This document shows, one piece after another, positions 12,549-62,404 of a stretch of DNA of 64,000 bases. The stretch is from Undaria pinnatifida. Taxonomy: Eukaryota; Sar; Phaeophyceae; Laminariales; Alariaceae. The translations under genes were made by a program, and so were the position numbers. The stretch is taken from the NCBI GenBank assembly GCA_012845835.1, contig JABAKD010000014.1:5670396-5734395 (forward strand), read 5' to 3'. Below the pieces are notes generated by a model that had not been told where the DNA came from, made no database searches, and worked only from the letters and a program-made list of their open reading frames with translations. The first letter of the stretch is position 1; every line of letters starts with the position of its first letter.

Positions 12549-12998
12549 TTTCGAGGACGATAAACTACTTCGTATAAATATGCGCGGGCTCCAACATGTT
12601 GGTTAGAACCAAAATCCTTCAGTATAACTAAGAAACCCAAACAAAGGTTGTCCCGCTCTGCCGCTCTCGCGCGGCTTGCTACGGCTTGCTTGCACGTACG
12701 CCTCCCACCAGTAGCGCTCTCCACTCGCCCCATCCCTCGAGCAAGACCAGCTCGTGGATCGCCATGTTCCTGGAGGACGATACACCACTTCGTATAATAT
12801 AAATATGCGAATATGCGCGGCTCCAACATGTTGATGAGAACCAAAATCCTTCAGTATAACTAAGAAACCCAAACAAAGGTTGTCCCGCTCTGCCCCTCTC
12901 GCGCGGCTTGCTACGGCTTGCTTGCACGTACGCCTCCCACGAGTAGCGCTCTCCACTCGCCCCATCCCTCGAGCAAGACCAGCTCGTGGATCGCCATG
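12549..12998 (+). repeat. 231-base tandem duplication reaching the NADAR gene start codon
   Basis: Two near-identical units (for example ACATGTTGGTTAGAACC at 12595 and ACATGTTGATGAGAACC at 12827) are 231-232 bases apart. Each ends with AGCTCGTGGATCGCCATG. The ATG of the second unit is the proposed start of the zinc-finger NADAR protein. The first unit's ATG opens only a short frame. Confidence 0.85.
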
Positions 12999-15930
12999 TC
13001 TAGTTTTTTTTTCAGGCTGTTCCCCAGACGACCGCCCACGCCCGAACGGGTCTGTAGTCTGGCCGGCTGCTCGCGTCCCTGCTTCTTAGAACCTTCAGGC
13101 CGAGTACACGACTTCTGCGGCCTCACTCACGCCCGAGCCTTCGACAGCAAGCGAGCTGCCGACCTTGACCGTCACAGGCGGGCTGGTCAAGACCCCAGTC
13201 ACGGCCACAGTAAGCGAGGGGGCGGCCCGGTGCCTGCAGGGTGTTTCAACGAGAACGAGGAATACTGGACTGAGGAAATGGTGCTGTTTTGGCATCCTCC
13301 GTCGGTGTTTTCGCAGTGGACTCCTGCGGCTTTTGTCGTCGACAATGTAAGTCTCGTGTGCGGCGGCCCTCGTGCACGCGCGGTTACAGCAGCAATAGGA
13401 CCTCGTGAGGCCTCCTTGCCATCCTAGTACTGCAGCACTAGATTGCAAGCATCAGAGTTTTGGTGTTTGAGGGTGAAAGGCGTTGTCTGACCAGCCCCAA
13501 TAGACCACAGCTTCCATTTTGATTGGCCAACCCCGCTCCCACCTTCAATATTTTTGGGGCTAGGTTAGGGCATAGGCTCCTGGTTGGATTTGTATCTGAT
13601 CCTGTCGAGGCCGTAAGCACGCAAGCTCGGACCGTAATCCCGTGACTTGCAACTAGTGCTTGCAGTTCTAGGATTGCAAGGAGCTGCGCCCCAGCAATAC
13701 TGTAGTACAATAGCAGGATGTGGTGGCACCGCTGGCCGCTCACCCTATACAGACGGTTGATGCTTGTTTTGAGATCGCGCTCCTCAGGATTTTGGGTCGT
13801 TGGGCCTGCGAGGGATGACTCAACACCACGGTCGTACCCAACGTAACCCTGAGAGTTTTCCCTATGCTAGACCGCCACGTACCGTATAACACGTAAGGTC
13901 GCGTACCCCCTCGGACAGATCTCAAAGCTGGCTATCTCGACAACCGGGGGGTTGTTGCAATCGCCGCGCGATGCGCCAACAGGAAGTATTCGACAAGGTC
14001 TCTCGACATCCACTGTTTTCGTATGATAAGAGTTTGAGTTTCAACTGTTCAATCGGTCGTACTCACAGCTGACGTTTTTCAATTTTTATAAAATAGTATA
14101 GTGTAGACGCGTGCCACGATAGAGGTATACCCCTTTTTGGCGAAAATGTTTTTCTGAATGACGGGGCTCCTTAACCCAAAATCGTCGGAAATCGGCCATT
14201 TTTGTTTTCATGATTCTCGTCGTGTACCTAGGTTGTGGGATTTCTCGTCCGGTAGGCGTTTTATTTGTCTCCAAATCAGATCTTCGGGAGAGGTCTTGAG
14301 CTCCCAAATCGAGGAACCTCAGAACTAAAAGTGGTGTATGCACCTCTATCGTGGCACGCGTCTGTATCCTCCTGTTTAGTGTGGGAAAGTTCGGCTCGGA
14401 CATTCGTCCTAGGGTATGTGCTGTCTTGCGTGTTACCAGGTATTTTGCAATGCGGTGCAGGCTGGGCCGGCCAAAAGAAGGGACGATGTTTTTAGAAAGC
14501 TATGCCGACACCGCTGTTACGAAGTAGGACTTGACAATCGGAAGCGCTACTGATGCCACGTTGCACATGCAGAACAATATAATATGTATATATGTATATA
14601 TATGAAACCTTCTGAGGCTTTGTTTTGTCCGACTCGATCTCGCCGATATATCCGCGAAAACTCAAAAGCACCAACTTTTCCACACTGAATCCGTATAGAA
14701 GTCTTCGTTCCCGATCAAGGTGAAACTTGGTGGAAACAATGCTGAAGACTCTAGACGAATATCGATGTAAGTTTCATTGCCAATTCGCCCCCCATCAAGA
14801 TATGTCACCAAAACTCGATTCCATATACCTGGTATGCGTCATGTTTTCGACAAGAGTGGAGAAAATTAAAAATATCGCTGTTCCCCGCTCATTTGTTGGA
14901 GTTTGGAGCTGAGATTTTGACACGCGATTTAGAGAAAGCTCATCAAAACACAACTTGGCGAGCTCAAAAAATGTATGAAAAATTGCCGACATACGACCGG
15001 TCAAAAGTTGCCCATGATATTGAAATTGACGAAAAGTCAACGAATTTTCAGTTTTTTTTTAGCTCGCCAAGTAGTGTTTTGGCGTGCTTGCTCTGAATCA
15101 CATGTCAAAATTTCAGATCCGAACTCCGAAAAATGAGTGGGGCACAGCGATGTTGGTTTATTGTGAGCGTCTTGGCCGGCCCAGCGTGTAGTCTGAGTAA
15201 ACGTCGCAAGTGTGAATTCGGACGAAAACCGCGACCTGCAGGTGTCTTACTCCTGCGCGGAACAGTATATGATGGCGCAGAAGGCGAAACTCTTCGGCGA
15301 CCTTGACGCCCTCAGGCAGATCATGGCTACCGACGACCCGAGTGCTCACAAGAAATTCGGCCAAGGCGTGCGGGGGTACCACCAGGGCGCATGGGACTGG
15401 GAGAAAAAAGCCATTGTCATGAAGGGAAGCTACGAAAAATTCAATCAGAATCCCGATATGGCGCAGCATCTACTCGACACCGGGGAGAAGGTGTGTATAT
15501 ACCAGGTATGTGTGTTTTACATGTGTATGTGTGTGCGCGTGTGTGAAGCCCATGTACCAGCGCGTGACACCCACGTACGGAACCCTACACCGTTTACTTT
15601 TTATTCAAGCGGTTAGTGCCAATTAACTAACTGGCATAATACTACGAATGCACGGATGGTAGCAAATACCAGAGGATGATATTGGCTGCTGCTCCACGGC
15701 ACGGCGTGCTTTCCCGCAGCCTCTTAAAGCCTGCGCGGACGCTTTCCGATTGTTACCGCCACAAGCAGATCTTGGCCGAGGCAAGCCCGCACGACACTGT
15801 TTGGGGGATAGGGCTCAAGGCGGACGACTCCGCAGCTTGGACAAAGGCCACCTGGCGAGGGCAGAACTTACTCGGCGAGGTCCTACAGGAAGTGCGCACT
15901 CGCATCCTCATGGATTGTTGCTCCGGCTGA
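12996..15930 (+). CDS. Zinc-finger NADAR-domain protein (three exons)
   Basis: Exons are 12996-13346, 15242-15490 and 15769-15930. Both introns are GT..AG and phase 0, and the product is 253 residues. Residues 20-45 form a Cys/His finger (C20, C25, C41, H45; core GRVHDFCGLTHA). Residues about 90-250 are a whole NADAR domain: EYWTEEMVLFW, FSQWTPAAF, SYSCAEQYMMAQKAKLFGD, then ASPHDTVWGIGL and WRGQNLLGEVL. NADAR proteins related to YbiA cleave N-glycosidic bonds. Reported roles are clearing damaged riboflavin intermediates and removing ADP-ribose from guanine; which applies here is unknown. The domain fragments join exactly at the splice sites, which supports the model. The start is the ATG closing the upstream tandem duplication. 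Intron 1 (1895 bases) carries a MITE and a family I element. Further 5' exons cannot be excluded. Confidence 0.85.
13440..14105. other. Intron 1 of the NADAR gene, non-repeat part
   Basis: No exon, RNA gene or known repeat family is recognised in this part of the intron. Short minus-strand open frames are present but lack protein-like motifs. Confidence 0.5.
14106..14362 (+). mobile_element. MITE family A in NADAR intron 1
   Basis: It runs from GACGCGTGCCACGATAGAGG to CCTCTATCGTGGCACGCGTC, 257 bases with matching inverted ends. Both ends carry the same compensating GTGCCACG/CGTGGCAC variant. This is an intact copy with the standard body. Confidence 0.9.
14455..15192 (+). mobile_element. Family I element in NADAR intron 1
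   Basis: The inverted ends are GCTGGGCCGGCCAA (about 14460) and TTGGCCGGCCCAGC (about 15173). The inside shares the GATCAAGGTGAAACTTGG, ATATCTC/CGCGAAAACTC and hairpin blocks of the copy at 10089-11105. Its right end lies 49 bases before the exon 2 acceptor, so it borders the branch-site region. Confidence 0.75.
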
Positions 15931-22776: not shown

Positions 22777-23194
22777 GGTATATACCGGGGACCGATGCTC
22801 CAAGGTCCCTTTCAGGGCTTAACTCGACCGTTCACTGCCCCAGCGTCCACAGTTACTGCACTGCAGCTCTGACACCCTCCGCTGCTGTGCGATTTTTCCT
22901 TGCAATTTCGATTCGAGAGATTTTTCGTCTTGGCCCTCCCGTGACTAGAACATGAATTTAGTGAACGCTGAAACTCTGTGCTGGCTTTTTTGGGCAAGGC
23001 TGTCGGCGTGTGCGCGATGCCCTATATTCCACAATGTATGGGTACGCGGGGGCATATACCACTTTCTGTATGGGCACAGCTGCGATAGTGCGGCACTCTG
23101 CACTGCTGTCGACGCAACTGTCCCTTTATAGTGCGGTCGGTGTGACTACGGAATTTTTTCAGCTGTCCAGGCGTTAGGCGGTCTTCCTACTGCC

Positions 23195-23530
23195 GGTACA
23201 TGTGCTGCCCTTCCACAACGCTGCTAGGATAGGTGCTTCATTTTTTTTTGCAGCTGTCACGACGGATAATGTCCGTTGCGATGCGGTTTACTGTTGGCGG
23301 AGACGCTGAGCACTTTACTTTTGGTGCAAACGCTGCCTTTCTGCTGCTGCTCTTAGTACATGTGCTGCCCTTCACGATGCTGCTAGGGTCTATGCTGGCA
23401 TTTTTTTTCTCTGCACATGTTCGGACAGCTACTGCCCGTTACAGAGCGCTTACTACAGTTCGCGGAGATACTGCGCCTAACACAGCTTTTATTAGTGCAA
23501 GTGGGGATCAGCCCGTTTGATGCGGTACTT
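23195..23530 (+). repeat. Degenerate tandem pair, period about 160
   Basis: GTACATGTGCTGCCCTTC occurs at about 23198 and 23357. Both copies continue with CTGCTAGG, a poly-T run and ACTGTTGGCGGAGA / ACAGTTCGCGGAGA. It lies upstream of the clearer arrays leading into the gag frame. Confidence 0.6.
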
Positions 23531-23679
23531 GGGGGCAAACAGCCTTTCTATTCGGCTGCGGGCGTACACACCTTTTCTACAGCTGGTCTTGGCATTATAC
23601 TACCCTTTTTAAGGCGGTTGGTGTTGTCGTCATCCGTGGTCACGGGAGCAATTTGGCAGCAATCAGCACTACTGTAGGC

Positions 23680-24150
23680 TCGACCGTCCCTCTATAGTGC
23701 GGTCGGTGGGGGAACCGCCTTGTTCGGACGCTATTATACTACGCATCTCGATGCCGTTGGAATTGTCGTTACCTCTCAACACAGCAGCGATGATACAGCA
23801 ATCCGCACTGTAGGCGTGATCGTCCCCCTATAGTGCGGACGGTGGGAAAACTGCCTTGTTCGGGGGTTATACTGCCCATCTTCGTGCGGTTGGTATTGTC
23901 GGTACCCATGAGCACAGCAACGATAATGCAGCGAGCAGCACTACTGTAGGCGCGACCGCGCCCCTATAGTGCTGTCGGTGGGGAAACTACCTTGTTCGGG
24001 GGCTATACTGCCCATCTTTGTGCGGTTGGTATTGTCGGTACCTATGGGCGCAGCAACGATAGTGCATCGAGCAGCACTGCTGTAGGCGCGACCGTCCCCC
24101 TATAGTGCGGTCGATGGGGAAACTACTTTGTTCAAGCGTTGTACTCACCT
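23680..24150 (+). repeat. Tandem array, period about 133, 3.5 copies
   Basis: CGACCGTCCCTCTATAGTGCGG at about 23682 recurs at about 23818, 23952 and 24088. Each copy has GCGGTTGGTATTGTCGGTACC and ends with CACTACTGTAGGCGCGACC. It lies between the MITE at 22776 and the retroelement gag, so it may be leader or LTR-derived. Confidence 0.75.
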
Positions 24151-24179
24151 TGTCATCTGATTGGCATATGTACAACCAT

Positions 24180-24730
24180 ATACTGTGCTACCCCCCCCTA
24201 CAATACTGTTGAGGCGGATGCTGCCCATTTGTTTTTTGTATACGGTTGGCGGCGCGATCCTCTACTGTGCTACCCCCCCCTACACTACCGTTGGGGCAGA
24301 TGCTGCCCGTTTTTTTCATTCGGTTGGCTGCGCGATGCTCTACTGTGCTACCCGCCCTACACTCCTGTTGGGTGACCCTTTGCTGTGCTACCCCCTTACA
24401 CTGCATCTGGGTTAAATGCTGCCTGTTTTGGTGCGATGAGCGTCGGCTTGTTGGGCGAACCTTTAATGTGCTACCCCCTACACTGCACCTAGGTTTAATG
24501 CTGTCTGTTTTGGTGCGATGAGCGTCGACGTGTTAGGCGACCCTTCACTGTGCTGCCCCCCTACACTGTGCATGGGATGAATGCTGCCTGTTTTGGTGCG
24601 ATGGGCGTGGGCAACCCTTTACTGTGCTACCCCCCCCCTACACTGCACCTAGGTTAAATGCTGCTTGTTTTGGTGCGATGGGCGTGGGCGTTTGGGCGAC
24701 GCTTTCGTGTGCTACTACCCCCGCCTAGGT
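24180..24730 (+). repeat. Tandem array, period about 80, about eight copies
   Basis: CTGTGCTACCCCCCC-type starts occur near 24184, 24266, 24341, 24382, 24468, 24549, 24621 and 24707. They are followed by ACACTGCACCTAGG, TTAAATGCTGCCTGTTTTGG and GTGCGATGAGCGT. The open frames here follow the repeat and have no domains. Confidence 0.75.
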
Positions 24731-25160
24731 TGAATACTGCCTGTTTAAGTACGATGGGTGCAGACGTGCCTTTACTGTGTTGCACTCCTTGCACTGCGGT
24801 TAGGGTCAGTGCTGCTCATTTTTGGCCGCTTTTACTGCGGTTCGTGCGGGCGTTACCCGTATACCCTACGGTCAGACTGAGCGCTGCTTTTATGTTGCGG
24901 TTTTGGTGGATGGTACCCTTATCTTACCGCTGTCCTCATTTTATACCGCTAGTTGGCGTGGCTGCTACCATCACTGATGCTGGACGGAGTCGAGGCCCAT
25001 ATCTTGCTGTTTGCTGAAACACAGATATATCGCTACTTGCAGCAGGGACACCACAACAATATATCTGCCTCCATACCTTCTTTACGCGTCGTTCCCATCC
25101 CGCCACCTTCCCCCACACCCCCTCCTTCCGCTGCCCTCCCTACAGCTAACAAGCAACAAC

Positions 25161-26969
25161 ATGTCTACCAGTGAGGAAGCGGGCTACTCGCGGCAGACTG
25201 AGGTCTTCCACGCGCCCCAACCTGGATGTCCACGAGACACGGAGAGCTCGCTCGAGATCCCGCGACTCGAGACGGGGGGAATCACCGGAGGCGGGTTGCG
25301 GTGACGAGACAGAAGACGGACCACCATATCACCACCCGGACCCACCAACCCAGAGGGTCGACTCGCCGGTTCGCGCAGAGAACAAGACGGATCAACCTCC
25401 ACCGGACTCGGGGGCGTCTCGACGCCAGCTCTCGCCAGCCCCGGGGGAGCGCCACCAGCTGCCCCCCCCCGCTCTCGACGGGGCACCACCGCCGCCACCT
25501 GGGCTCTCCGCGCTCGACAGAGCGCAACCCCCAGGGCTCCCGGGACCTGGGCGCGCATGCCGGTCCCTTGGACTTGGCTTATGCGGCGGCGCGGGCCCAG
25601 TGGGCGCTCGACGACGCCAACCACATGATTCTTCGCGTGAAGCACGCCGACGTCGGTTTGACGGAGATATCGAGCAGGCGAAGACCGCTGCGCGGGAGGC
25701 GTCTCTGGTAGTGGAGAGGGCGCAACATGCCCTTGCCCAATCAGTTTCGTCGGCTGCGGCAGGAGCTACTGCGGCCCCCTCGCCTTCGATGCGCCCGCAG
25801 GGTGTCACATCCCAGCGACCACGACCCGGGGACGCCGCCTTTTTCAAGGGCAGCGTCGCGTGCATGGAGTCTGCACCGAGGTTAGAGTTCTCGCCAGCGT
25901 TGGCGACCGCGGTGGTGGAAACGGCCTCCGCCCTCCTCACGTCAGAAAGGTCGGCGTCGTGGCAAGTGGACGCCCTTTTAGTCGAAGCGGCCTGGACTCG
26001 CATGAATTGTACGCCCTATGCCGGCCAGACGAGAGCCGCCCCGACCCTTGCCCTCGCCAAGGCCCTGCTGATGGCCCACGACGAGCCCCCCGACCCCGTC
26101 TTCTGGTCGAACCCCGGAGGAAGAGTTGGCGGAACGCAACCGGGGGAAACAGCGACGCAGCGACAGTCGCGACCGCGGGGACCGCAAGCGTGGGGGTGGC
26201 AGCAAAAATGGTGGGGGTGGCAGCAAAAATGGTGGGGGTGGCGACCACCGCCACCGCGGCGGGGGTGACAGCGGTGGTAGAGGCGGGGGGGGCGCATCGG
26301 GTGCTGATGTGGCTGAGGGCGTCGCCGAGGGGGCAACTTTGGTCCAACAACAGGGGCAGTTGGCCGCAGCTCTGGCGGAGGCAACGGAGGGCGGAGAAAC
26401 GACGATGTGGCTGAGGGCGCCGCCGAGGGGGGAACTTTGGCCCAACAACCGGGGAAGTTGGCCGTAGCTCTGGCTGAGGCAACGGAGGGCGGAGAAACGG
26501 CGCGAGAGGACGTTCAGCGTGGGACTGCTCGTCAACCTCCTACCGCTCGTCTTCGTTCTCGAGCACGGACGACCACAGCGAGGTGGCCGTGATAGCAGGC
26601 AAGAGGTGTCAAGAGCCATGGCAGGAGGAGCATCTGGTCCTGAGGCTTTCACCCTCCTGTTGCGTCTGCTGATCACGCACTTCGACGGGGTTGACACGGA
26701 GGAGGGCTACACTAAGTTGCATACTTTTGGAATGTGTAACGGCATGCCTTTTTCCGATTTCAGCGGGGAGTTTCGCGTACTTATGCCGACCGCTAACGGA
26801 GAGTGAGCGTGTTTTGTCTCCGGGGACGGATGTGATGTTGGAGAAGGTTCGGGTAGCGGCGAATGGGCAATTCCCGGCTCTCATGCCTGCGTTGTACCCT
26901 GGTTTGAACGCAACGGACCCGCGGCCATACGCCTCGTTGGATGCTATAAGGCGGGCTTTTAGTGACTAA
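25161..26969 (+). pseudogene. Retroelement gag-like region, frameshifted
   Basis: An ATG at 25161 opens a short frame. Gag-like sequence then moves between frames. There is an alanine-rich helical, probably coiled-coil, stretch (LDLAYAAARAQWALDDAN near 25565, continuing as DIEQAKTAAREASLVVERAQ near 25665). A basic Arg/Gly region near 26130-26290 follows. A capsid-like segment lies at 26620-26969 (LLLRLLITHFDGV, then a frame change near 26805 into MLEKVRVAANGQFPALMPAL). A 92-base tandem duplication is at about 26315-26500. Position upstream of the zinc knuckle and pol domains supports gag. The product would be nonfunctional as it stands. Confidence 0.65.
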
Positions 26970-27327
26970 GCGCATAATAAGACTCCTGCCGTCAACGGCA
27001 AAACACTTTTTCTCTGCCTGTTTCTTCGACGGGAGCGCGGTCATCCGCCCCGTCGGGGCCCCGGCCCGCCGATCATGAGCGTGGCCAGGGCCGAGTGCCG
27101 CCCCAGTCGCTTTCGTGGCAGACGGGATCGAGCCATCATTCAACTGTCATGCCCATCGATGATTCATCTGACCCTTGGCTTGACCACACATCGAACTGCT
27201 GGCCACTAGAAGAGCATCATTATGCAGAAGTTTTCGCCGTTAATGCCTCGTTTAAGAAGACGACCCTCCACTTTGAAGCGGCCTCCTTTCACCTTGCGCT
27301 GATGCTCTCCGACACAACCCGGGGCTT

Positions 27328-27369
27328 TGCCTCAACTGCCACGAAGACAACCATTCCTTCAAGCATTGT
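27328..27369 (+). pseudogene. CCHC zinc knuckle of gag
   Basis: The translated motif CLNCHEDNHSFKHC is an exact C-x2-C-x4-H-x4-C knuckle, preceded by LRHNPGL. In-frame stops lie just upstream (for example 27274), so it is a remnant. Such knuckles in retroelement Gag bind the element RNA. It fixes this region as gag/gag-pol. Confidence 0.85.
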
Positions 27370-27399
27370 AGGCATACTTTCATTGCTGCGAGTGGCTGC

Positions 27400-28700
27400 T
27401 TGAACCCTGAACTTGGTCAACTTGGCGACGATGACGCACACCGACGTTGACGAACACGCATGGTCTGCTACCGCCGAGACGATAAATCTTATCGCCCGAA
27501 GAACAAGAAAAACGGTCGCCATTTTTCAGGTCAATCGCAAGGGTACCACCAGGATCAGAGCCAGGTAAACTGTCACAACGATACCACATACACGTCGGAT
27601 CACGATGGTGGTATCCCGCGCTCGCCCGCCTTTTCTGCCCCCGCTCTTTCTCCTCGAATGCGCTTTGGAGCCGCCCACAACCCGGGCAGAAATGCTTTCG
27701 TGCGCCAGCCTGGCACATTCCGTAACGGCAATCGACAGCTCGACGACGGTACGGCACTGTCGACAACACTGTCGGGGGGCACCTCTTTTGGTTTCAAAAG
27801 ATGTTCGTGCTCTGTCGCTAGCCTGTCCAACAACGCAGCACAGACTGCCTCTGAGAAGAGCCCACGGGCTCCTACGCCGTCTGCGGCTGATTCTCACGAC
27901 GTAGTACCGGCGGTGGGAACTAGCGTTTCGAGCGTGGCTCCCTCCAGCCAGTTTTTGTTTTTTCGACGGCGAGAACGCGCGCTTCCAGCGACGTTCCCCT
28001 CGGCCATGGTCTGAGTTCGGCGACGGGAACCGCGCTTCCAGCGCCGTTTCCCTCAACCGCGGCATAAACTCAGCAATGGGGGTACGCGCTCCAAACGCCG
28101 CCCCCATCAACCATGGCACGGGAGCCTGCGCTTTGCGCGCTCCTCCCCAGGCACGCGTCGCGCAACAATAAACCTGCGGCGACGGCGCGTCGCCTTTTTA
28201 CGCGAACGTGTTCATCCCCCCCTCTCCCTGACCAGGCGGTGGCAGTCGGTTTAAAGTGTGGGACGGTCGACCCTCAAACACTTTTTCTCACCACGAGGTG
28301 GTGGTCGATTTGAGGTGTGGGAAGGCCAACACTACAACACCGAGATCTTTTGCGAGGCTCAATCCGGTGTTTGCTCGCGATAACAGCGGGTGCTCTGTCC
28401 TTTTTTTCCATCAAGGAGGAGTCGACAAGATTAGCTACCTCGTTTCCCTTCACCAAAAGGCATAACAGAAAAGAGCCTCCTCGAGTAAAAACATTATTGC
28501 CACTTTCCCGAGCCCCGCTCCAGAAGACGCCCACAGGGTCTACGGACCCTGCTTCGTCTTTCATCACGCTAACCCACGCGTTTCAGGCTACGTCTGCCCC
28601 AGTGGCACAGAAAGAAGACCCGACACTGGGCGACGGGCCAGTGGTGACGCCACGGCCTCCAGCCTGACCAGCTGGACGCTATTCCCGTAAATTTACGGAA
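27400..28700 (+). other. Unassigned gag-pol spacer
   Basis: A 184-codon plus frame (27460-28014) and others are open, with Ser/Thr/Pro-rich composition. No aspartic protease signature (D-S/T-G) or reverse transcriptase motif was found in the three plus frames. Near 27985-28125 a block ending in CCGCGCTTCCAGCG repeats about three times. Confidence 0.45.
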
Positions 28701-28744
28701 GAATCGCGCATCTCGTCAAGCAGAAACAGCTCAGAGCCCCTGTT

Positions 28745-29345
28745 CCTTCGGGCGCAGCTAGAGCAGTTTTCTTGCGATTATACGCCAAAGAGCGAAGCGG
28801 CCACGACGCGAGAAACCGCGGGTTTGGACGCGCGTCGTGCTCTCGAGGCCTGGTGTTCCTGAGGGGGACACAACAGGCTCAAAGTGCCGAGGACTGGTGT
28901 TCCCAGAGGGGGACAATGCAGACCCAAATGTCCAACGAGGCTACCGACGGGTTGGTACGGTCGGTGTTGGACTTTTTTTCGTGTGTAGCGAGGGCGGCTT
29001 CTAACGAGGTTCCGCCAGCAAGTGAAGAAGACCCGAGGCAAGAAATCCCGGATTCGGACTCGCATCTTGCTCCCGAGGCCTGGTGCTCCCGCAAAGGGAC
29101 ACTACAGGCCCAAAGAGCTGAGGACTGGTGTTCCCAGAAGGGGACATCGCAGACCCACAAATGTCCAACGAGGCTACCGACGGGTTGGCACCGTCGGTTT
29201 TTGCCATTTTTCGGGCGCAGTTAGAGCGGATTCTCGCGTTTTTCTGCCAACGAGCGAGGAAGACCCGAGTCGAGAAACCACGGGTTCGGATTCGCGTCGT
29301 GCCCCCGAGGCCTGGTGTTCCCGGACGGGGACATTGCAGGCGGGG
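28745..29345 (+). repeat. Tandem array of about 200-230-base units coding EDPxxE...EAWCS repeats
   Basis: Three units share a segment translating to GSDSRRAPEAWCSRTGTLQA (variants PEAWCSRKGTLQAQRAEDW, EAWCS, AEDWCSQ) and TDGL...SVF/LDFF. Individual units fall in different plus frames because of indels. The array lies immediately upstream of the NADAR frame and has no counterpart in the host NADAR gene at 12996. Confidence 0.65.
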
Positions 29346-29377
29346 CCCCCAAATTCCAAAACGGCTTTTGATCCTCT

Positions 29378-29873
29378 CTCGAATACTAAACAGACAAAGT
29401 GGTGTTGTTCTGGCAGCCCCCATCCTATTTTCCACCGTGGTCCCCTTCGTCGTTTGCCGTGGACGACGTGCCATATTCTTGCGCGGAGCAGTACATGATG
29501 GCCGAAAAGACCAGGCTTGTCCAAGACCATCGAGCAGTGGGGCTCATCATGTCATCGCCTAGTCCAGCACACGCAAACGCATCAGCCGAGGCGTGCGCAG
29601 CTTTGACTCCGGTGTCGGGGATAGGGAGAAGCAAAACGCCGTGTTATCTGGCACCTACGCCAAATTCACGCAAAATCCAGCCATAAAAAATCACCTTTTG
29701 AGTTCTGACAACAAGATTCTGGCTGTATCCAACCCTCTAGATCCAGTGTGGGGCGTTGGTCTCGGGTAGGATGATCCCAGGGCCAACAACCCATGCCAGT
29801 GGAGAGGAAACATTAGCTCGGTGAGGCACTTTCTGCCGTTCGCGAAGCTATTCGCAACAGTGAGACCGGATAG
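29378..29873 (+). pseudogene. NADAR-domain reading frame inside the retroelement
   Basis: The sequence follows the NADAR domain from start to end: EY(stop)TDKVVLFW, SPSSFAVDDVPYSCAEQYMM, then after a frame change near 29570 GTYAKFTQNPAIKNHLL, NKILAVSNPLDPVWGVGL and QWRGN. After another shift near 29820 it reads EALSAVREAIRNSETG, ending at its own TAG (29871). In-frame stops at 29387 and 29767 show decay. Both junctions where the host gene has introns are contiguous here. Divergence from the host copy is large, so it is not a recent retrocopy of that gene. Families of this kind hydrolyse N-glycosidic ADP-ribose or riboflavin-intermediate bonds. What it did for the element is unknown. Confidence 0.85.
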
Positions 29874-30034
29874 GCGCACCCGGCCTCCCCTAGTCGGTTC
29901 CGCACCTGCACTGCGAATGCAAGAACCAATAAATCTCGTCCGTGCCGCGGTCGGGCCGTTAACAGCGGCAGGCGTTCGCAATGCTTCCCCTTCGGAGTTT
30001 CCGACCTTTTTCTCGGGCGCGTTGGCCAACTAAA

Positions 30035-30490
30035 ACCCGTGAAGTTTTGGAGATAGCTTCTGGCGTCGGTCCTGACCTTGCGCTGTCAGAACACGGCCCC
30101 TGTTTCGTCGGGAGTACTGTGATGCTGGACGACGTTTCGCTCACTATGAAATCGCGTACTTCAGTCGAGCAACGCTCGACTCGGAGAGGCACTGGACTCC
30201 TCTAGATTTGGGGACCGGCAGCATTGCTTGGGTTCCCAAACGCCTCCGAGGGTACTTGTGGGGAACAAAGTTCCGCGTATCCTCCGGCCACAAAACACAG
30301 GAGAGCATTGGCAAAGTGGGGACCCTCAATGCACGAGTCCAGCGGTAGCTTGAGTTCGTCACCGCGTTTGATTGCACACTCGAGTACCGCAAAGGCAGCG
30401 CCAACGGCATCGCCGATTTTTCTGGCCCGTTTTCCAGAGCCTGATACGGAGTACGACTGCAGTGGCTTGACAAACTTCAACTCCGTGGGG
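30035..30490 (+). pseudogene. Retroelement RNase H
   Basis: The translated order is LEIASGVGPDLALSEHG (normally TDASGVG), HYEIAYFSRATLDSERHW, TPLDLGTGSIAW, KRLRGYLWGTKF, QESIGKVG and TAFDCTLEYRKGSANG. This matches the Ty3/gypsy RNase H block. The usual first catalytic Asp position reads Ile-Ala-Ser, and an in-frame TAG at 30346 replaces the expected Trp codon after VQR. It begins only about 160 bases after the NADAR stop, with no reverse transcriptase between. Confidence 0.8.
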
Positions 30491-30589
30491 TTGACAAGCC
30501 CCAACCCCGTTGGAGATAGCGGTATCTACCTCCTACGGACCGGCGAGCTGCGCGCTCCCTCTTCGCCGATCCCAGGGGTCGGTTTGGGT

Positions 30590-30725
30590 GAACTCGTGCC
30601 CCGCACCGAAAGCACTGCTTTGGGTGGACTCGTCCCCCGCACCGAACGCACTGCCTTGGGTGGACTCGTACCCTCGCCGAAAGCACTGTCTTGGGTGGGT
30701 TCGTGCCCCGCACTGAATATGCTGC
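30590..30725 (+). repeat. 42-base coding repeat, about four copies
   Basis: A 14-residue unit of the type LVPRTESTALGG repeats about four times in frame (starts near 30594, 30636 and 30678, and a degraded one near 30700). It forms a linker between RNase H and integrase. Because 42 is a multiple of three, the array keeps the frame. Confidence 0.7.
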
Positions 30726-31247
30726 CTTGGGTGAGCTCCGTTTCACCTCTACCGCATTTCACGATTTTCGCACGCACGAGCCACGCATAAGGATTGACGG
30801 TCTTTGTGCTCCCCCGGGGAGATTCGTCGCTCGTGTTTCTGCCGCCGTCGCCACTACCGAAGGCTGTACCGGCCGCGGGTCGGTTTCACCTGCCACTGAC
30901 ACCGTTTTTGCTTCGGTTTCTGTCGTACCCATCGAGGGCGGCACGGGCTCCGCAGAAGCCCTGGCTGCAGCGACGCCCATCGCACAGCCGACACCCCTAT
31001 CAAGGAGTTCTGCACAGGAGACGAACTCCGCCGCGACCACCGGTTCGACTGTGTCCATCTTTGTCTTGCTTGGCGCACCAGCGCCCCCGTCGTCGACGAC
31101 GCGCCGACGAACAGCGAGAGCAACCGGTAATACACCCCGCTGTAGAATATGGGTTCGGACCCGGCGGGGCCCCTCGGCCATTTTCCAGACGGGGTTCACG
31201 CGTTATTCGCCTGCCGATTGGAAGCGAGAGCAGCAGGCTGAGCCGAC

Positions 31248-32464
31248 GTGTCATGCCATGATACGTTACATCTCTATCGACCGGCCATCAGTCCTGCCGC
31301 CCGACTTTTGGGCGTGCTACCCCTTGCACAATCGTCCCTCCCTCTCAAACATCCAGGAGCTCGCAAGGGTCGACTACATACAATCGACGACGACATCTTC
31401 CTACTCGTCCGTAACCCGACACTGCCGCCAACAAGGTCTGACAAACCCAACTCTGTGGGGCGAGCTGCTGGCTTGCTAAACGACGAGCCTGTTTGCATCT
31501 TCGTCCCCTTGCTCATGCGCCCTTGGATCATGCAAGCTTGTCACTCGGCGGCCTCTTGTCACCTTGGCCCCACGCGCACGTTGCGCATGCTGGAGCGGTT
31601 TTATTGGTGGATTGGCATGGATGTGTGCACCCGGTGGTGGCTTCGCCACTGCTTGAAGTGTCAAGCGCGGAAAACCCCACGGCTGACTGTCCGCTGGCTC
31701 ATCATCTCAATGCCTCTACAGGAGGCCCAGATGTCACCGTCAGTGTTGACTACTTCGTCCCCCTTCCGGTCACACCATGAAGCAACACCTGCATCCTGCT
31801 GTTCACCGACCGCTTCAGTCGTCGGGCCGACATGTTCCCCGTCACTGCCGCTGAGTTCATCGCGGAGGGTACAGCCAATATCCTGGTGAACCAATACATC
31901 CCCTTGTAGGGGTGCCCGCGCACCATACTCTCGGACAACGGACTGCAGTTCTGCTCCAAGCTTTCGCAAGCTGTATATCAGCTGTTGGGTGTGCCCAAGC
32001 TTGCTACAAGCTCCTATCATCCCAACTGTAACGGGGGCGTTGAGCGGGTGAACCACACTATGGCCCAAATGCTGGCTATGGTCGTCAACGAGCGACAAGA
32101 CGATTGGGAGTTGCATCTGCCCCACGTCGAATTCGCTTACAACAATTCCGTCAGCACGGCGACGGGTCTGGCGCCCAACGAGGTCCACATGGGCAGACTC
32201 CCACGGCTTCCCGTGACGGTTTTCGACGTCACTGGTGTGGTGGGACACCAGAATCTGGCCCGTGATCACCTAGTCTATTGCGACTTGGCCACCGACCGGC
32301 AAAAGCGCGCGAACGACATTGTCCGCGCACACCACGCCCTCACCGGTTCTCGTGTTAACCACAGAAACTCCTCCCTCGCCGACGCGATGCGTCCAGCACC
32401 TAACTTCGCTACGGGTGGTTGGGCATGGGTGTATAATTTTCCTCTACCATCCGCCAGGGTGTGA
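31248..32464 (+). pseudogene. Retroelement integrase
   Basis: The HHCC zinc-binding part is at about 31530-31670 (ACHSAASCHLGPTRTLRM, then WLRHCLKCQARKT). The catalytic core follows after a frameshift near 31715: SVDYF (Asp codon 31748), TILSDNGLQF (Asp codon 31934) and GGVERVNH (Glu codon 32042). The last two are separated by exactly 35 residues, the D,D-35-E spacing. Stops at 31778 (TGA) and 31907 (TAG) interrupt the core. The frame 31985-32464 continues with HVEFAYNNSVSTATGLAP, typical of Ty3/gypsy integrases. Integrase inserts element cDNA into the genome; this copy cannot be translated intact. Confidence 0.9.
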
Positions 32465-33370
32465 AGGCAAACACCGACGTCAAGGTACCCAAGGCCAAAC
32501 TCGCGCTTAACTGGACGGGCCTGTACAAAATTCTAGCAGTCGGTTTCTGTTCCACCGCCGAGACCCCGGACGGTTCGCCGCTCGGGAGCAACCTCCTCTA
32601 TTTGGAATCCCTTCCGACCTGCCTGGTTCGGACGCTCGTCGGCGTGTGGCCACCGAGCGCTGCAAGCCCTGCGCCAACGCCCACGACAGCGGGGACATGT
32701 ACAAATACCTACCGGCGGGGCTGACGCAGTACATGCTCAACAATGTTTCCAAGAAGTCCCCACCGTACCACGTCACTCAAGACGACGTTTCGACTCCCCT
32801 CCAACGGCTGGAGGTGGAGCAGATCACCGGTCATCAGTCGGTACGGGGGAGAGGTGGCGTCATCGCGGTGCTATACAAGACGCATTGGGCAAGACTCTCC
32901 GAACCTTCCTGGGAGCGGGAAATGGACCTCCACCTCTCCCGCCCCCACATCTTTCGGTATTGGGCCGGAACCCCGGACCAGCACCGCCAAACCAACCGCC
33001 GCTACCGCCGAATGCGGATCGGGGCGGCACAGCGCGAGCTCTCCCGCAACAACGGGGAACGTTTCCTAGCGTCGGGCTACGCCTGTGTTCCCCGCGCCGA
33101 TTGACTCCGTCGCTACCACGACCCGATACTTTCTAAGGGATCCCACGTTTGGTACACGAGAGACGATGGGTTATGGTGGCGTGGAAAAATCAGCGCGAGC
33201 ACTACAGAGGACAATTTTACCTGGTCCGCTTTCTGGACGACCCGAGACCGATTAAACTTCCTCTTCCCCCGGCGCGCTACACGACTTCCACGGGAGCCGT
33301 ACGAGGCTCTCTTGATGCCTGCAAGTTCACATCGCCAGTGCGTTTCCTAGGGGGATCCAACGTAACGTAG
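32461..33370 (+). pseudogene. Integrase C-terminal module and chromodomain
   Basis: ALNWTGLYKILAVG near 32505 is a GPY/F-like module. After a frame change near 32640, the frame 32646-33104 carries PPYHVTQDDV, RLEVEQITGHQSVRGRGG and AVLYKTHWARLSEPSWE, a chromodomain fold. DGLWWRGKISAST and YLVRFLDDPRPIKLPL near 33165-33265 (again split by a shift) suggest a further SH3/Tudor-like end. Chromodomains steer insertion of chromoviruses to marked chromatin. An in-frame TGA closes the chromodomain frame at 33104. Confidence 0.75.
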
Positions 33371-34265
33371 ACGAATCTCGAGGCGCGGCCGTGGCCAGTT
33401 GACTTTCAAGCCGCCACCGCTCCTCGATAGTTCTCCATTTTTTGGGGTTATGAGGCTTGAGTCTTTGTCTTTGGGTTGTTTGTGATGTTCTCAGAGTCTT
33501 GGTCTGGTTTTGGGGCGATTCTTTCCATCTTTTTTTCTTCTTGTTCTGCCTAACCCCGTGCTCAGTACCGGGCCAGGGTTTGGGTAAAACACCGCGACCT
33601 GAGGCGCAGGGCTGTCGATTTTTCGTCGTTGTTCAATTTCGCCCGGCCGACGCCCTCCTCAGCCCAGAGTCGGGGGGCGACCAGGGTACCCTTTTCGCGC
33701 GTAACGTGGTACGGGGCTATGTACGGGTCTGTGTGCCATCTTTTACCTTTTGTGTGTTGAATTTGTTCTACTTTGTTTTTCCGATTAAACACTTCCCCCC
33801 CTCGCGGGGCTGTAGGTGTTGCCACCTTCCAACCCGGGTATTTGTCGCTTCCTCGTCTAACCCCCCGCCATGCCGATGGCCCGCGGGAGTTTTTCGCATG
33901 ACTTCTCCCTTGCGTTAGAGCGCCTGTGTTCCCCTCCGTATCGACGAGGGGTCACCTCGCCATTGTGTTTTTTCTGTGGTTGGTTTGCCGTAGAGCCTTT
34001 CCTGCCCCCCCCCGCCACACCGGTGGTATGCGACAGGTTCTAGACCCTTTTCTGCCCCCCCGCCACACCGGCGACACGCGGCAGGATTTTGATGGGTGAC
34101 TTTTGCCTTGTTGCAGGGTCTGCGTGTCCTTCAACTGCTTTTCTTCGCGTGTTCCTGGCTCCATAGCCAGACCGTTAGAGGTGTGGGAGTGGGTTATGAG
34201 GAGCCGCATCTTCGACTCATGATCTAGTTCGTAGAACCGGAGTTTCCCTAAATCTCCCATATTTC
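33371..34265. other. 3' flank of the retroelement, possible LTR
   Basis: TTCCGATTAAACACTTCC near 33780 could hold a polyadenylation signal. A 68-base unit (GTTTGCCGTAGAGCC... CCTGCCCCCCCCGCCACACC) is repeated twice at about 33990-34085. I could not match it to any upstream block, so a paired LTR is unproven. Confidence 0.4.
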
Positions 34266-34274
34266 TGCATATGC

Positions 34275-34565
34275 GGCTCATCAGGGTGGGCTAGTGCTAA
34301 GATACAACCTCGAAAGGCCTTTAATTATCCGTATTTGAGTAAATTTGGATGGGTTTCGCATGATAAGGTGGGTGTTTTATATTCGGGATAGTCAAGAAAT
34401 AGATCGGAGGCACGTGCCTCCGGTCTCAGAAGCCATCCGGGACTCTGGTGGAAGCGAACAAAGCTACGACTACGAAGGCTACGAAAGTGAGTACTCTCCG
34501 AGGACCTGCTCAATTGGCAGACCTGCAGGGGACACTCTGTGTCTCCGCCCAGTAACCTTACACAG
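34275..34565 (+). repeat. Dispersed repeat family G
   Basis: From AAGATACAACCTCGAAAGGCC through TTGGATGGGTTTCG, AGATCGGAGGCACGTGCCTC and GAGTACTCTCCGAGGACCTG to the C-rich end, this matches 51062-51315. It contains the palindrome GGAGGCACGTGCCTCC. The mobility class is unclear. Confidence 0.75.
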
Positions 34566-51050: not shown

Positions 51051-51061
51051 GTAGCAGTTGT

Positions 51062-51315
51062 TAAGATACGGCCTCGAAAGGCCTGTAGATATCCGAATTT
51101 GAGATCATTTGGATGGGTTTCGTATGATAAGGTTGGCGGTTTATATTCGGGGAAGTTAGGAATTAGATCGGAGGCACGCGCCTCCGATCTCAGAAGCTAT
51201 CCCGGGCTCTGGTGGAAACGAATAAAGCTACATCTCTACGAAGGAACGAAAGTGAGTACTCTCCGAGGACCTACCCAATTGGCAGACCTGCAGGGGGCAC
51301 TCAGTGTCCCCCACC
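51062..51315 (+). repeat. Dispersed repeat family G
   Basis: It matches 34275-34565, with the palindrome GGAGGCACGCGCCTCC and the C-rich end GGCAGACCTGCAGGGGGCAC. It is immediately followed by a family E SINE. Confidence 0.75.
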
Positions 51316-51327
51316 TATTAACTTAAC

Positions 51328-51612
51328 AAATGGCGTCGTCGACAGACCATGGGTTTTTTGGGTCGTGGGTTCGATCCCCACCGTCCACAACAATAAACTT
51401 TTCAGATTTTCCCCATGTCGAACTTGAAAAATACTCTCCCCGGTATGCCCAGGAAATGAAACGACTTGGATATAGACAGGTCCGCCGTATATCCGGCCGA
51501 CCTGCTATCCCGCCGTTTCAGGGGGGGAGAGTGTTATAAGGCTTAGTTTGGGTAAGCTAATGGTTAACCAGTTGCAAGTGGTCAAACGGACTAATACCCC
51601 ACTAAAGTCCTT
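51328..51612 (+). mobile_element. tRNA-derived SINE family E, plus strand
   Basis: The head reads ACAAATGGCGTCGTCG...GGGTCGTGGGTTCGATCCCC, with the B-box at 51367-51377. The body is ACTCTCCCCGGTATGCCCAG, CAGGTCCGCCGTATATCCGG and GCTATCCCGCCGTTTCAGG. The tail is GGCTTAGTTTGGGTAAGC... CGGACTAATACCCCAC. Four other copies or parts lie on the minus strand. No polyA tail is seen. Confidence 0.8.
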
Positions 51613-60685: not shown

Positions 60686-62260
60686 CTACATCTCGAAGCG
60701 CATTCTCCCAGCATCCGACGGAGTAACCGCACTACCACCGCCATCCGCCGCTAACACCCGCATCGTAGCAGAGCGGGAGGGAGCGCCCGTGGCCAATGCC
60801 TGTGATTTCCGAGGCCCCCATATGCTCAAGGGATGCGCTATGCCGGCTGCTGCTGCTGGCACGCCGGTTGCGACACCGGCTCCACCTGCTTTGACTGTTA
60901 CTACCCCAGCTACAACCCCGGCTACCCCGGGCACGCCGCCTCGCCCCATAAACGTTGCCTCCGCTGCCGCTGCCGCAGGCCTATCACCCTCTCCCCCCGG
61001 CACCGCCGCTCCCACGTTTATCCCGACAGCAGTCTCGGGCCGATGATCCTTCCCCTGCCTATCCAAGGCGTATGGCTCGTCGACCTTGATATCAACTGTT
61101 GCTTCAACGTCACGCGGCACCACGTCGAAACCCGTGTTCCGATTATCCCCGCCCCGCCGTTCCCCGCCCCGCCCCTCCGCGCCCTTCCCTTCCTTGCTCC
61201 GCCCGTCTGCACCTCTCTCCTCCTTACCCCGCCCATCCGCGCCTCGCCTTTCCGTGCCCCTACCCTCCGCGCCTCGCCTCTCCGCGCCTCGCCTCTCCGT
61301 GCCCCTCTCCTCCGTGCACCGTCCCTCCGCGTCCTTCCCCTCTGCACCCCGCCCCTGCGCGCCCCTCCCCTCGGAGCCACGCCGCTCCGCGTGCACGCGC
61401 TCGTCGCGCACCCGCTCCGTGCCCCCCCTCTCTGAGCCCCTCCCCTCTGCGCCCCTCCCCTCCGGACCCCGCTGCTCCGCACGCCTCCCCTCGGAGCTAC
61501 GCCGCTCCCCCCCTCTCCCCTTCCAGCCACGCCCGTCGGATTCCCGCCTCTCCCTGTCCCGCGCCTCGGCGCCCTGCCCCTCCGCGCCTCTATCCCCCGC
61601 GCCTCGCCTCTCTCCAGCGCCTCGGCTTTCCCCGTCCCTCCCCTCCGTTCTTCGTCTCTCCGAGCCCCGTCCCTCCGCATCCCGTCCCTCCGCATCCCGC
61701 CGCTCCGCGCCACGCCTCTCCGCACCCCCCCGACCCTCCGCGCGCCGATCCTGCACGTCTCGTCCCTCCACGTCCCTCCCGTCCACGCCTCGCCGATAAC
61801 CACCGAGCGACCCACCGCCGAGCGAGTCCTCCTTGCGTTCCCCGCCCGAACCTTTCGGTGATTCGGCTCCCGGTGCGAACGCCGGAGAGGGTGGCGCCGG
61901 CCACCGTCCCGACCTCCCTGGTGTCCCTTCGCGCGCCTCAGTGGTGTCAATGCTGTCCTCCACGCTGGGTGAGCGCGGAGCAGCCACCCGCGATGAACCA
62001 GAGGAGGATGGGGGGAGGCCTTTCGCTGTAGTAGCGGGCGGGGGAGTTGTTGTTCTCGACGGCGGCGGCGGCGGCGGCTGCGGCGACTGCGGCGACTGCG
62101 GCTGTCGCTGCGGCGATGACTGCCGTTGGCGGGCGCGGAGGCTCTCCCTGTCAGAAACGTTCTGGGCCCTCGCCTGTGCTGCCAGCTGCGATATGGTAGG
62201 CAGGGGGTCGGAGGCAGTAAATAGTAGATATGTGAGTCGGCAGGATTTCACGACTAGCAC
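60686..62260 (-). CDS. Arg/Glu/Gly-rich pentapeptide-repeat protein (candidate)
   Basis: A minus-strand frame of 524 codons is open from about 62260 to the stop at 60686. The first codon is GTG and no ATG precedes the repeat, so the true start is probably in an upstream exon; YLLFTASDPLPTISQL near 62225 may be just inside an acceptor. A predicted helix (ISQLAAQARAQNVSDRE) is followed by a Pro/Ser-rich linker. A block of about 235 residues of degenerate five-residue units follows (RGAEG, RGSER, RDAEG). A Gly/Ala/Val-rich C-terminus ends RMRFEM. The repeat is charged and probably disordered. Two plus-strand frames are also open over the repeat, a likely side effect of its 15-base period. No known family is recognised. 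Confidence 0.45.
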   Translation of the reverse strand: MLVVKSCRLTYLLFTASDPLPTISQLAAQARAQNVSDRESLRARQRQSSPQRQPQSPQSPQPPPPPPSRTTTPPPATTAKGLPPSSSGSSRVAAPRSPSVEDSIDTTEAREGTPGRSGRWPAPPSPAFAPGAESPKGSGGERKEDSLGGGSLGGYRRGVDGRDVEGRDVQDRRAEGRGGAERRGAERRDAEGRDAEGRGSERRRTEGRDGESRGAGERRGAGDRGAEGQGAEARDRERRESDGRGWKGRGGERRSSEGRRAEQRGPEGRGAEGRGSERGGTERVRDERVHAERRGSEGRGAQGRGAEGKDAEGRCTEERGTERRGAERRGAEGRGTERRGADGRGKEERGADGRSKEGKGAEGRGGERRGGDNRNTGFDVVPRDVEATVDIKVDEPYALDRQGKDHRPETAVGINVGAAVPGGEGDRPAAAAAEATFMGRGGVPGVAGVVAGVVTVKAGGAGVATGVPAAAAGIAHPLSIWGPRKSQALATGAPSRSATMRVLAADGGGSAVTPSDAGRMRFEM

Positions 62261-62404
62261 ATTAATCGGTAGGTGCCGTAAGCCAACTAACCGACTTTAG
62301 TCGTCCAGTCGGCTGTTTTTTGTTTTGTTTTTAGGTCTGCTCATTTTTTCTATTATGTTCGTACTTTTTTCTTTCTCCTTGTCCCTCCATACACGTAACT
62401 CAGA

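What the first reader, a model, noticed from the sequence alone, without database searches (positions are those of the whole stretch)
29378..29873. A NADAR-domain gene carried inside a Ty3/gypsy element, between gag and RNase H
Seen: a full NADAR domain ending at its own TAG lies between a CCHC gag knuckle and an RNase H/integrase/chromodomain set, all on the same strand. Known: NADAR proteins are N-glycosidases, linked to riboflavin-intermediate cleanup and to removal of ADP-ribose from guanine in DNA. Inference: the element may have captured a domain that protects its cDNA from a host DNA-modifying defence, or it may be passive gene capture. I know of no established retroelement class with NADAR.
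Basis: partly seen in the sequence, partly recalled or inferred. Interest (0 to 1): 0.88.

Follow-up and report, generated by a model that had tools for sequence, protein, structure and literature searches.

The report
NADAR-carrying Gypsy retrotransposon in kelp
A jumping gene of a farmed kelp carries an enzyme domain (NADAR) that in other organisms removes ADP-ribose from guanine; such NADAR retrotransposons were already described in another brown alga in 2025, the copy here is dead and belongs to a stripped-down family, and a closely related cellular NADAR gene sits nearby in the same stretch of genome.

Summary
The NADAR segment is real but broken: two Pfam-significant pieces in two frames, with frame breaks and a stop. 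The host is Undaria pinnatifida by assembly statistics. Its genome holds many NADAR-bearing Gypsy copies: 22 of 150 scored hits lie in stop-free frames of 2000 aa or more; in the one dissected, gag ends at a TGA and the next frame reads NADAR - protease motif - RT - RNase H - integrase. Two intact copies have identical LTR pairs and 4-bp target duplications. The window copy belongs to a non-autonomous family in which protease and RT are deleted between NADAR and RNase H (same junction in all 40 scored copies, the window's included); NADAR is broken in 30 of 30 of these examined and drifts neutrally. NADAR in Gypsy Pol is published for Ectocarpus (PMC12477816), so the kind is known. Added here: kelp occurrence, moderate evidence for purifying selection, kept catalytic residues, the RT-less derivative, and an apparently intact three-exon cellular NADAR gene at 12996-15930 that groups among the retroelement NADARs. 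That fits exchange of NADAR between host and element better than recent uptake from bacteria; direction is unresolved, and the enzyme's role is inferred.

The parts
22820..34564 (+). Non-autonomous (protease- and RT-deleted) Gypsy element; 5' LTR not found, so the 5' end is truncated or replaced
   Evidence: Collinear blastn matches to an intact relative and to a full-length RT-less copy
26468..28011 (+). gag remnant with CCHC knuckle (CLNCHEDNHSFKHC within 27277-27447)
   Evidence: Stop-free frames; same motif in the intact relative; no Pfam gag family
29390..29872 (+). Broken NADAR domain (PF08719), two frames
   Evidence: Pfam E 2.5e-9 (29390-29683) and 7.1e-13 (29563-29766); frame breaks and stops
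29871..29873 (+).
   Evidence: 1 of 30 copies has a stop there
30146..30151 (+). Junction of the protease-RT deletion (about 2.09 kb missing relative to the intact relative)
   Evidence: blastn L012 851-1630 to window 29362-30146 and L012 3718-4172 to window 30151-30630; uninterrupted match across it in all 40 scored copies, window included
30148..30345 (+). RNase H (RT_RNaseH) remnant
   Evidence: Pfam E 1.8e-9
31503..31676 (+). Integrase zinc-binding domain (H2C2)
   Evidence: Pfam E 1.8e-13
31910..32461 (+). Integrase core and downstream part
   Evidence: Pfam rve E 0.093, under cut-off; 921 protein hits, an Ectocarpus one at 68%
32811..32948 (+). Chromodomain-like stretch, not significant by itself
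   Evidence: Pfam Chromo E 0.12, below cut-off
34295..34564 (+). 3' LTR
   Evidence: 84% to the LTR of an intact relative
12996..15930 (+). Separate, apparently intact cellular gene: zinc-finger-like motif plus NADAR, exons 12996-13346, 15242-15490, 15769-15930
   Evidence: tblastn pieces 63/57/63% to the element NADAR; GT-AG phase-0 introns and open 253-aa reading; GC3 0.69 against 0.48-0.50 GC in introns

Best explanation
The segment is the decayed NADAR domain of a Ty3/gypsy LTR retrotransposon of the kelp Undaria pinnatifida. In the intact relative NADAR is the N-terminal domain of the pol frame, after gag and before the protease, and its active-site residues are largely kept. Most likely it works as an ADP-ribosyl-guanine hydrolase that travels with the element's proteins and cleans the element's RNA or cDNA of ADP-ribose (inferred, about 0.4; not tested). 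The window copy no longer does this: it belongs to a non-autonomous derivative that lost protease and RT, keeps LTRs like those of the intact family and was probably moved in trans by it (inferred), and its NADAR has been a drifting passenger. SHOWN: domain identity, order in an intact copy, shared deletion, shared NADAR break, neutral pattern in the derivative, kinship with Ectocarpus elements and with a cellular NADAR gene in the same window. INFERRED: enzyme activity, substrate, trans-mobilisation, packaging.
For: Genome search: 1454 first-look candidates, 150 scored, every listed row over the Pfam cut-off; 99 of 150 have no stop inside and 22 of 150 lie in stop-free frames of 2000 aa or more (table, recounted). 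Two family-A copies have identical LTR pairs (267 of 267, 269 of 269) with 4-bp target duplications TATA and CTAC. Order in one dissected copy: gag with CCHC, one TGA, then NADAR - RT - RNase H - H2C2 - rve, with a protease motif LLDTGS between NADAR and RT in a sister copy. The window's deletion junction is spanned without interruption in all 40 scored copies, window included (1173 candidates). One full-length RT-less copy is about 13.05 kb with LTRs 267 of 269 alike, TSD CAAA, and LTRs about 97% like family A. NADAR broken in 30 of 30 RT-less copies, window included; singleton changes at codon positions 72/64/63. Intact copies: NADAR dN/dS medians 0.40 (76 pairs, dS 0.02-0.2), 0.35 (24 pairs, 0.6-1.5), 0.27 (59 pairs, 1.5-9). 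Of the eight ligand-contact residues in the passage I saw of PMC11543638, family A keeps seven (R93 is K), by my reading of the alignment to 8bau with a numbering offset of two. NCBIfam TIGR02464 at 153.5 and 148.4 bits, cut-off 73.7. An Ectocarpus protein joins NADAR, RVT_1, RNase H, H2C2 and rve in one chain (P0243). Publication PMC12477816 (passages). Host: contig C34 has 16,510,065 bases, exactly the scaffold N50 of the published Undaria assembly, and G000 has 511.1 Mb against 511.3 Mb.
Against: Within-family codon-position tests for NADAR are not significant (A: ratio 0.63, p 0.058; B: 0.86, p 0.46), so constraint rests on deeper comparisons, where synonymous sites near saturation. The 23 copies were picked for open frames. 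NADAR changes faster than RT (A to B 48% against 81% identity). Some copies differ at active-site positions (L062 and L065 at the E43 place, L066 at the K50 place). No Pfam protease match was found, and rve in the intact copy scores 32.5 bits, just under its cut-off of 32.6. The family-C copy L064 gave no RT match in its 2.5 kb and the family-D copy L068 only 77 of 159 residues. No activity, expression or packaging data. Only one RT-less copy was followed end to end.
Confidence: 0.85

Rival explanations
1. Passive cargo: NADAR was captured by chance and is carried along without a function for the element.
For: In the RT-less family NADAR is broken in 30 of 30 copies and drifts neutrally; within-family tests on intact copies are not significant.
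Against: NADAR precedes RT in two diverged kelp families and in Ectocarpus; the columns of E43, K50, R79, E125 and D130 are invariant across the six kelp sequences aligned; dN/dS is below 1 in the deeper comparisons.
Confidence: 0.15
2. NADAR serves as a structural or nucleic-acid/NAD-binding part of the element's polyprotein (spacer, packaging), not as an enzyme.
For: It sits between gag and protease and evolves faster than RT.
Against: Active-site residues are largely kept and it scores above the cut-off of an enzyme equivalog-domain model.
Confidence: 0.15
3. NADAR acts on riboflavin intermediates (as the TIGR02464 name says) and helps host or element metabolically.
For: TIGR02464 match above cut-off.
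Against: No metabolic reason for a retroelement to carry it is apparent (judgement); NADARs tested in the passages I saw act on ADP-ribosyl-guanine (PMC11543638, PMC11833690, PMC11125620).
Confidence: 0.08
4. Origin by transfer from bacteria straight into the element, as the Ectocarpus paper suggests as possible.
For: The closest bacterial NADARs (a planctomycete and a Polyangia bacterium) reach 59% to family A, near the 61% of the cellular kelp gene.
Against: The cellular gene groups with 19 of 22 element rows in a clade with support 96/96 that holds none of the 11 bacterial rows, and element rows without it are rejected as one clade (p-AU 0.036; with it p 0.349).
Confidence: 0.2

Closest known systems
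Gypsy-12_Ec32 lineage of Ectocarpus (PMC12477816; passages read)
   Same: Ty3/gypsy, NADAR of the YbiA family at the N-terminal part of Pol, putative chromodomain at the integrase end; an Ectocarpus protein in the database shows the same chain of domains
   Different: Kelp host; the intact kelp pol frame is 2473 aa; the window copy lacks protease and RT and its NADAR is broken; NADAR 61% and RT 72% identical between family A and Ectocarpus P0243
NADAR-bearing ORF1 of Tx1 LINEs of the Pacific oyster (PMC12477816; passages read)
   Same: Retroelement carrying a YbiA-family NADAR
   Different: LINE, not LTR; not compared here
8bau (named in PDB as NADAR domain-containing protein; taken as the P. 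nicotianae NADAR by residue numbering) and E. coli YbiA 2b3w
   Same: Alignable over the NADAR core, active-site glutamates and lysine in the same places
   Different: Cellular proteins; E 8.9e-15 and 2.4e-4 to family A
Non-autonomous LTR-element derivatives in general (recalled)
   Same: LTRs kept, essential enzyme genes deleted, probably moved in trans
   Different: Here gag, NADAR and integrase remnants remain and only protease plus RT are deleted
Cellular zinc-finger-NADAR gene at window 12996-15930
   Same: 61% identity to family A NADAR, the best among the 84 rows compared
   Different: Three exons, own stop, zinc-finger-like N-terminus, no retroelement domains

Membership tests
NADAR (PF08719), YbiA subfamily | Profile match above curated cut-off | tested here: met
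   Window pieces 38 and 49.6 bits, cut-off 35.1; intact relative 176.9 bits
NADAR (PF08719), YbiA subfamily | Subfamily glutamate (E125 of P. nicotianae NADAR) in the last strand | tested here: met
   Met by the intact relatives: invariant in six kelp element sequences by alignment to 8bau. Not kept in the window copy nor in 8 of 30 RT-less copies, the window's among the 8
NADAR (PF08719), YbiA subfamily | ADP-ribosyl-guanine hydrolase activity | not testable with these tools
   Needs a bench assay
Ty3/gypsy LTR retrotransposon (intact relative) | Order protease, RT, RNase H, integrase | tested here: met
   RVT_1 5.1e-27, RNase H 2.1e-30, H2C2 2.4e-12, rve 1e-7 (0.1 bit under cut-off); protease by motif LLDTGS only, no Pfam match
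Ty3/gypsy LTR retrotransposon (intact relative) | LTR pair and target-site duplication | tested here: met
   Two copies
Ty3/gypsy LTR retrotransposon (window copy) | Reverse transcriptase present | tested here: not met
   Deleted; junction at 30146/30151. It is a derivative of such an element, not an autonomous one
Ty3/gypsy LTR retrotransposon (window copy) | Two LTRs | tested here: not met
   Only the 3' LTR found
NADAR-Gypsy lineage of Ectocarpus | NADAR ahead of RT, RT kin | tested here: met
   RT tree groups family A with Ectocarpus, 97/94; same domain chain
NADAR-Gypsy lineage of Ectocarpus | Chromodomain at the C-terminus | tested here: inconclusive
   Pfam E 0.12 in the window, none in the intact relative tested

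The most novel reading that the evidence does not exclude
NADAR has been exchanged between brown algae and their Gypsy elements. Most boldly, the kelp's own three-exon zinc-finger-NADAR gene is a domesticated retroelement NADAR (it nests inside the element clade), or the elements took NADAR from such host genes more than once; either way host and parasite share an ADP-ribosyl-guanine hydrolase, which points to guanine ADP-ribosylation of nucleic acid as a contested step in retrotransposition.
Probability: 0.3. Interest if true: 0.78.

Novelty: new member of a known kind. Interest (0 to 1): 0.47.

Why it matters
If the element NADAR is active, it would be direct evidence that ADP-ribosylation of guanine in RNA or DNA bears on retrotransposition in a eukaryote, an open question. 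The kelp data give a testable set: intact young copies, a derivative family in which the domain is broken, and a cellular homologue next door. They also question the published suggestion of uptake from bacteria.

Tried and rejected
NADAR as an independent insertion or separate gene inside one copy: rejected, it has the same place in many copies and is in the pol frame of intact ones. Chance match: rejected. The TAG as the domain's stop: rejected. A second capture for family B on the strength of RT 81% against NADAR 48% identity: first thought likely, then left open. The RT tree puts A with Ectocarpus rather than with B (A, B and D as one clade: p-AU 0.026); 22 element NADARs held together fit better than the free tree on the 84-row set (p-AU 0.771); but on the 44-row set with the cellular gene, elements alone are rejected (0.036), elements plus gene are not (0.349), and B and D lie outside the supported clade of the free tree. 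A solo LTR at 51059: on a second look it continues into the leader, so it is the 5' LTR of another fragment. Rfam (gathering threshold) and tRNA scans of the window: no match. Viral contigs with one element protein as query: no relative; with an alignment, 97 relatives. Copy number of the cellular gene: not obtained (genome search did not complete). Structure prediction was not run.

Full report
1. What is there. Two stop-free pieces of the window match Pfam NADAR above its cut-off: 29390-29683 (38 bits, E 2.5e-9) and 29563-29766 (49.6 bits, E 7.1e-13), in two frames. The neighbours are RNase H (30148-30345), integrase H2C2 (31503-31676), a sub-threshold integrase core (E 0.093) and a sub-threshold chromodomain (E 0.12), with a CCHC knuckle upstream, read by eye.

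2. Host. The genome G000 has 511,146,479 bases in 68 contigs and one contig of 16,510,065 bases; the Undaria pinnatifida assembly paper gives a scaffold length of 511,280,173, 114 scaffolds and a scaffold N50 of 16,510,065 (PMC7058681, passages). I take the host to be this kelp; contig numbers differ.

3. Other copies. The NADAR family search of the genome gave 1454 first-look candidates, 150 of them scored and every listed row over cut-off; 99 of 150 have no stop inside, 22 of 150 lie in stop-free frames of 2000 aa or more, nine of them of 2473 aa (recounted). In one (C30:12054764-12070223) the LTRs are identical over 267 bases with a TATA target duplication, in another (C18) identical over 269 with CTAC (the first comparison gave 273 of 274 for C18 because it ran past the LTR end). 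Pieces of the first give NADAR (5e-52), RVT_1 (5.1e-27), RNase H (2.1e-30), H2C2 (2.4e-12) and rve (1e-7, 0.1 bit under cut-off); Pfam found no protease and no gag family. A protease motif LLDTGS follows NADAR in the C18 copy. Gag with its CCHC knuckle and the 2473-aa pol frame that begins ahead of NADAR are in the same reading frame, separated by one TGA in both copies looked at. NADAR is thus the N-terminal domain of the pol frame.

4. The window copy is a derivative. Window DNA 29390-30450, which spans NADAR and RNase H, matches without interruption in all 40 scored copies, the window's own included; the 39 others are 91-92% identical (1173 candidates). Against the intact relative about 2.09 kb with protease and RT are missing. 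One such copy was followed to both ends: about 13.05 kb, LTRs 267 of 269 alike, CAAA duplication, LTRs about 97% like those of family A. Movement in trans by family A is an inference from this. Of the 30 copies with fetched DNA (the window's included, of the 40), none has an intact NADAR frame; all 30 share a frame break before the C-terminal helix and a change at the W89-equivalent; 8 of 30 lack E125 and 18 of 30 lack D130. Singleton changes fall evenly on codon positions (72, 64, 63; ratio 1.08, p 0.55), the picture of neutral decay. The window lacks a recognisable 5' LTR.

5. Selection in intact families. For 23 copies chosen for open NADAR frames (of the 150), pairwise dN/dS of NADAR has medians 0.40 (76 pairs, dS 0.02-0.2), 0.35 (24 pairs, dS 0.6-1.5) and 0.27 (59 pairs, dS 1.5-9); 64 pairs were saturated, and the other 30 of 253 fell below dS 0.02 or in no bin. 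RT, open in 18 of the 23, gave 0.33 (57 pairs at dS 0.02-0.2) and was saturated in 77 pairs. Against this, codon-position tests within families are not significant for NADAR (A 0.63, p 0.058; B 0.86, p 0.46), while RT in family A is (0.32, p 0.006). I conclude moderate evidence for purifying selection, weaker than on RT. By my reading of the alignment to 8bau (numbering offset of two), family A keeps seven of the eight contact residues in the passage I saw of PMC11543638 (E43, K50, R79, W89, E125, D130, W133; R93 is lysine); the six kelp sequences share the E, K, R, E and D columns, but copies L062 and L065 differ at E43 and L066 at K50.

6. What is known. PMC12477816 (passages read; supplements not read) reports that the families of one of four Ectocarpus Gypsy lineages all carry a YbiA-family NADAR at the N-terminal part of Pol, suggests possible horizontal transfer because blastp hits outside Ectocarpus were almost exclusively bacterial, and suggests RNA processing as the role. 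The word Undaria does not occur in its main text. Searches for NADAR with Gypsy and integrase (1 paper, this one), YbiA with retrotransposon (1, this one) and DUF1768 with transpos (2, judged irrelevant from the listing) found no other; the NADAR-retrotransposon search listed 20 of 104 papers, of which I opened only this one. Biochemistry: NADARs remove ADP-ribose from guanine in DNA (PMC11543638, PMC11125620) and RNA (PMC11833690) (passages).

7. Relatives. Integrase piece: 921 of 970 candidates at E <= 1e-3, best 120 listed, a named Ectocarpus protein at 68%. NADAR: 467 of 617 candidates, best 120 listed. With a 988-aa query limited to NADAR: 29 of 338, among them Ectocarpus chains that join NADAR with RT, RNase H and, in P0243, integrase. 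Prokaryote scan: 168 relatives, best 80 kept, best 59%; viral contigs: 97, best 80 kept, best 54%. Trees used 28 of 80 bacterial or archaeal loci, 25 of 80 viral loci and 25 proteins. Ten unnamed proteins are counted as element rows: seven show the LLDTGS protease motif, three (P0246, P0252, P0264) only by kinship to them; Pfam sees only NADAR in those scanned apart from sub-threshold matches. In the RT tree family A joins Ectocarpus (97/94), B and D join two unnamed proteins.

8. A cellular NADAR gene in the same window. At 12996-15930 an apparently intact gene of three exons with GT-AG, phase-0 introns encodes 253 aa: a zinc-finger-like motif (by eye; no Pfam match) and a complete NADAR. GC3 is 0.69 against 0.48-0.50 GC in the introns. 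It differs from the named residues at R79 (by eye). Its best match among the 84 rows is the element NADAR of family A, 61%; the best bacterial row is 55%. In a careful tree of 44 of the 85 rows it lies in one clade with 19 of 22 element rows (96/96); elements alone as one clade are rejected (p-AU 0.036), elements plus gene are not (p-AU 0.349). On all 85 rows by the quick method its nearest rows are element ones and the held clade of elements plus gene fits better than the free tree (p-AU 0.639). Families B and D fall outside the supported clade in the free trees. So NADAR has probably been exchanged between host and elements; direction and number of events are open. One regular expression for the zinc-finger motif, which finds the gene itself, found it in none of the 269 proteins held. 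Expression and copy number of the gene are unknown.

9. Mechanism and verdict. Best reading: the domain travels as part of the element's polyprotein and removes ADP-ribose from guanines of its RNA or cDNA, about 0.4 for this step; the rest of the identification about 0.85. The kind is already in print; kelp occurrence, the RT-less family and the cellular kin are additions.

Noticed in passing
window 12996-15930, + strand: Apparently intact three-exon cellular gene with a zinc-finger-like motif and a complete NADAR, closest among the rows compared to the retroelement NADARs.
   Followed up: partly
window 51059-51342: A further family-A-like LTR (95%) followed by the start of the leader, i.e. 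the 5' LTR of another element fragment.
   Followed up: partly
L011 7674-7676 and the same place in the C18 copy (L010): Gag and the long pol frame are in the same frame, separated by a single TGA, which may mean stop-codon readthrough; seen in two copies only.
   Followed up: partly
L064 (C35:10869546-10872056): A diverged copy (NADAR 69%) in which the stretch between protease and RNase H is short and no RT match was found: possibly a second, independent RT loss.
   Followed up: no
window 23671-24715 and L011 2830-4886: Arrays of 82-136-bp tandem repeats in the long 5' leader, of different extent in the window and the intact relative.
   Followed up: no
window 28769-29344: Three repeats spaced about 230 bp, upstream of NADAR.
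   Followed up: no
window 60686-62296: 536-aa open frame on the - strand made of arginine/glutamate/glycine-rich repeats over a GC-rich 15/30-bp tandem array; no search made.
   Followed up: no
P0259, P0265, P0267: Proteins that join a microbial-type PARG domain and an ADP-ribosylglycohydrolase with a C-terminal NADAR (Pfam scanned for P0259 and P0265; P0267 from the precomputed column).
   Followed up: no
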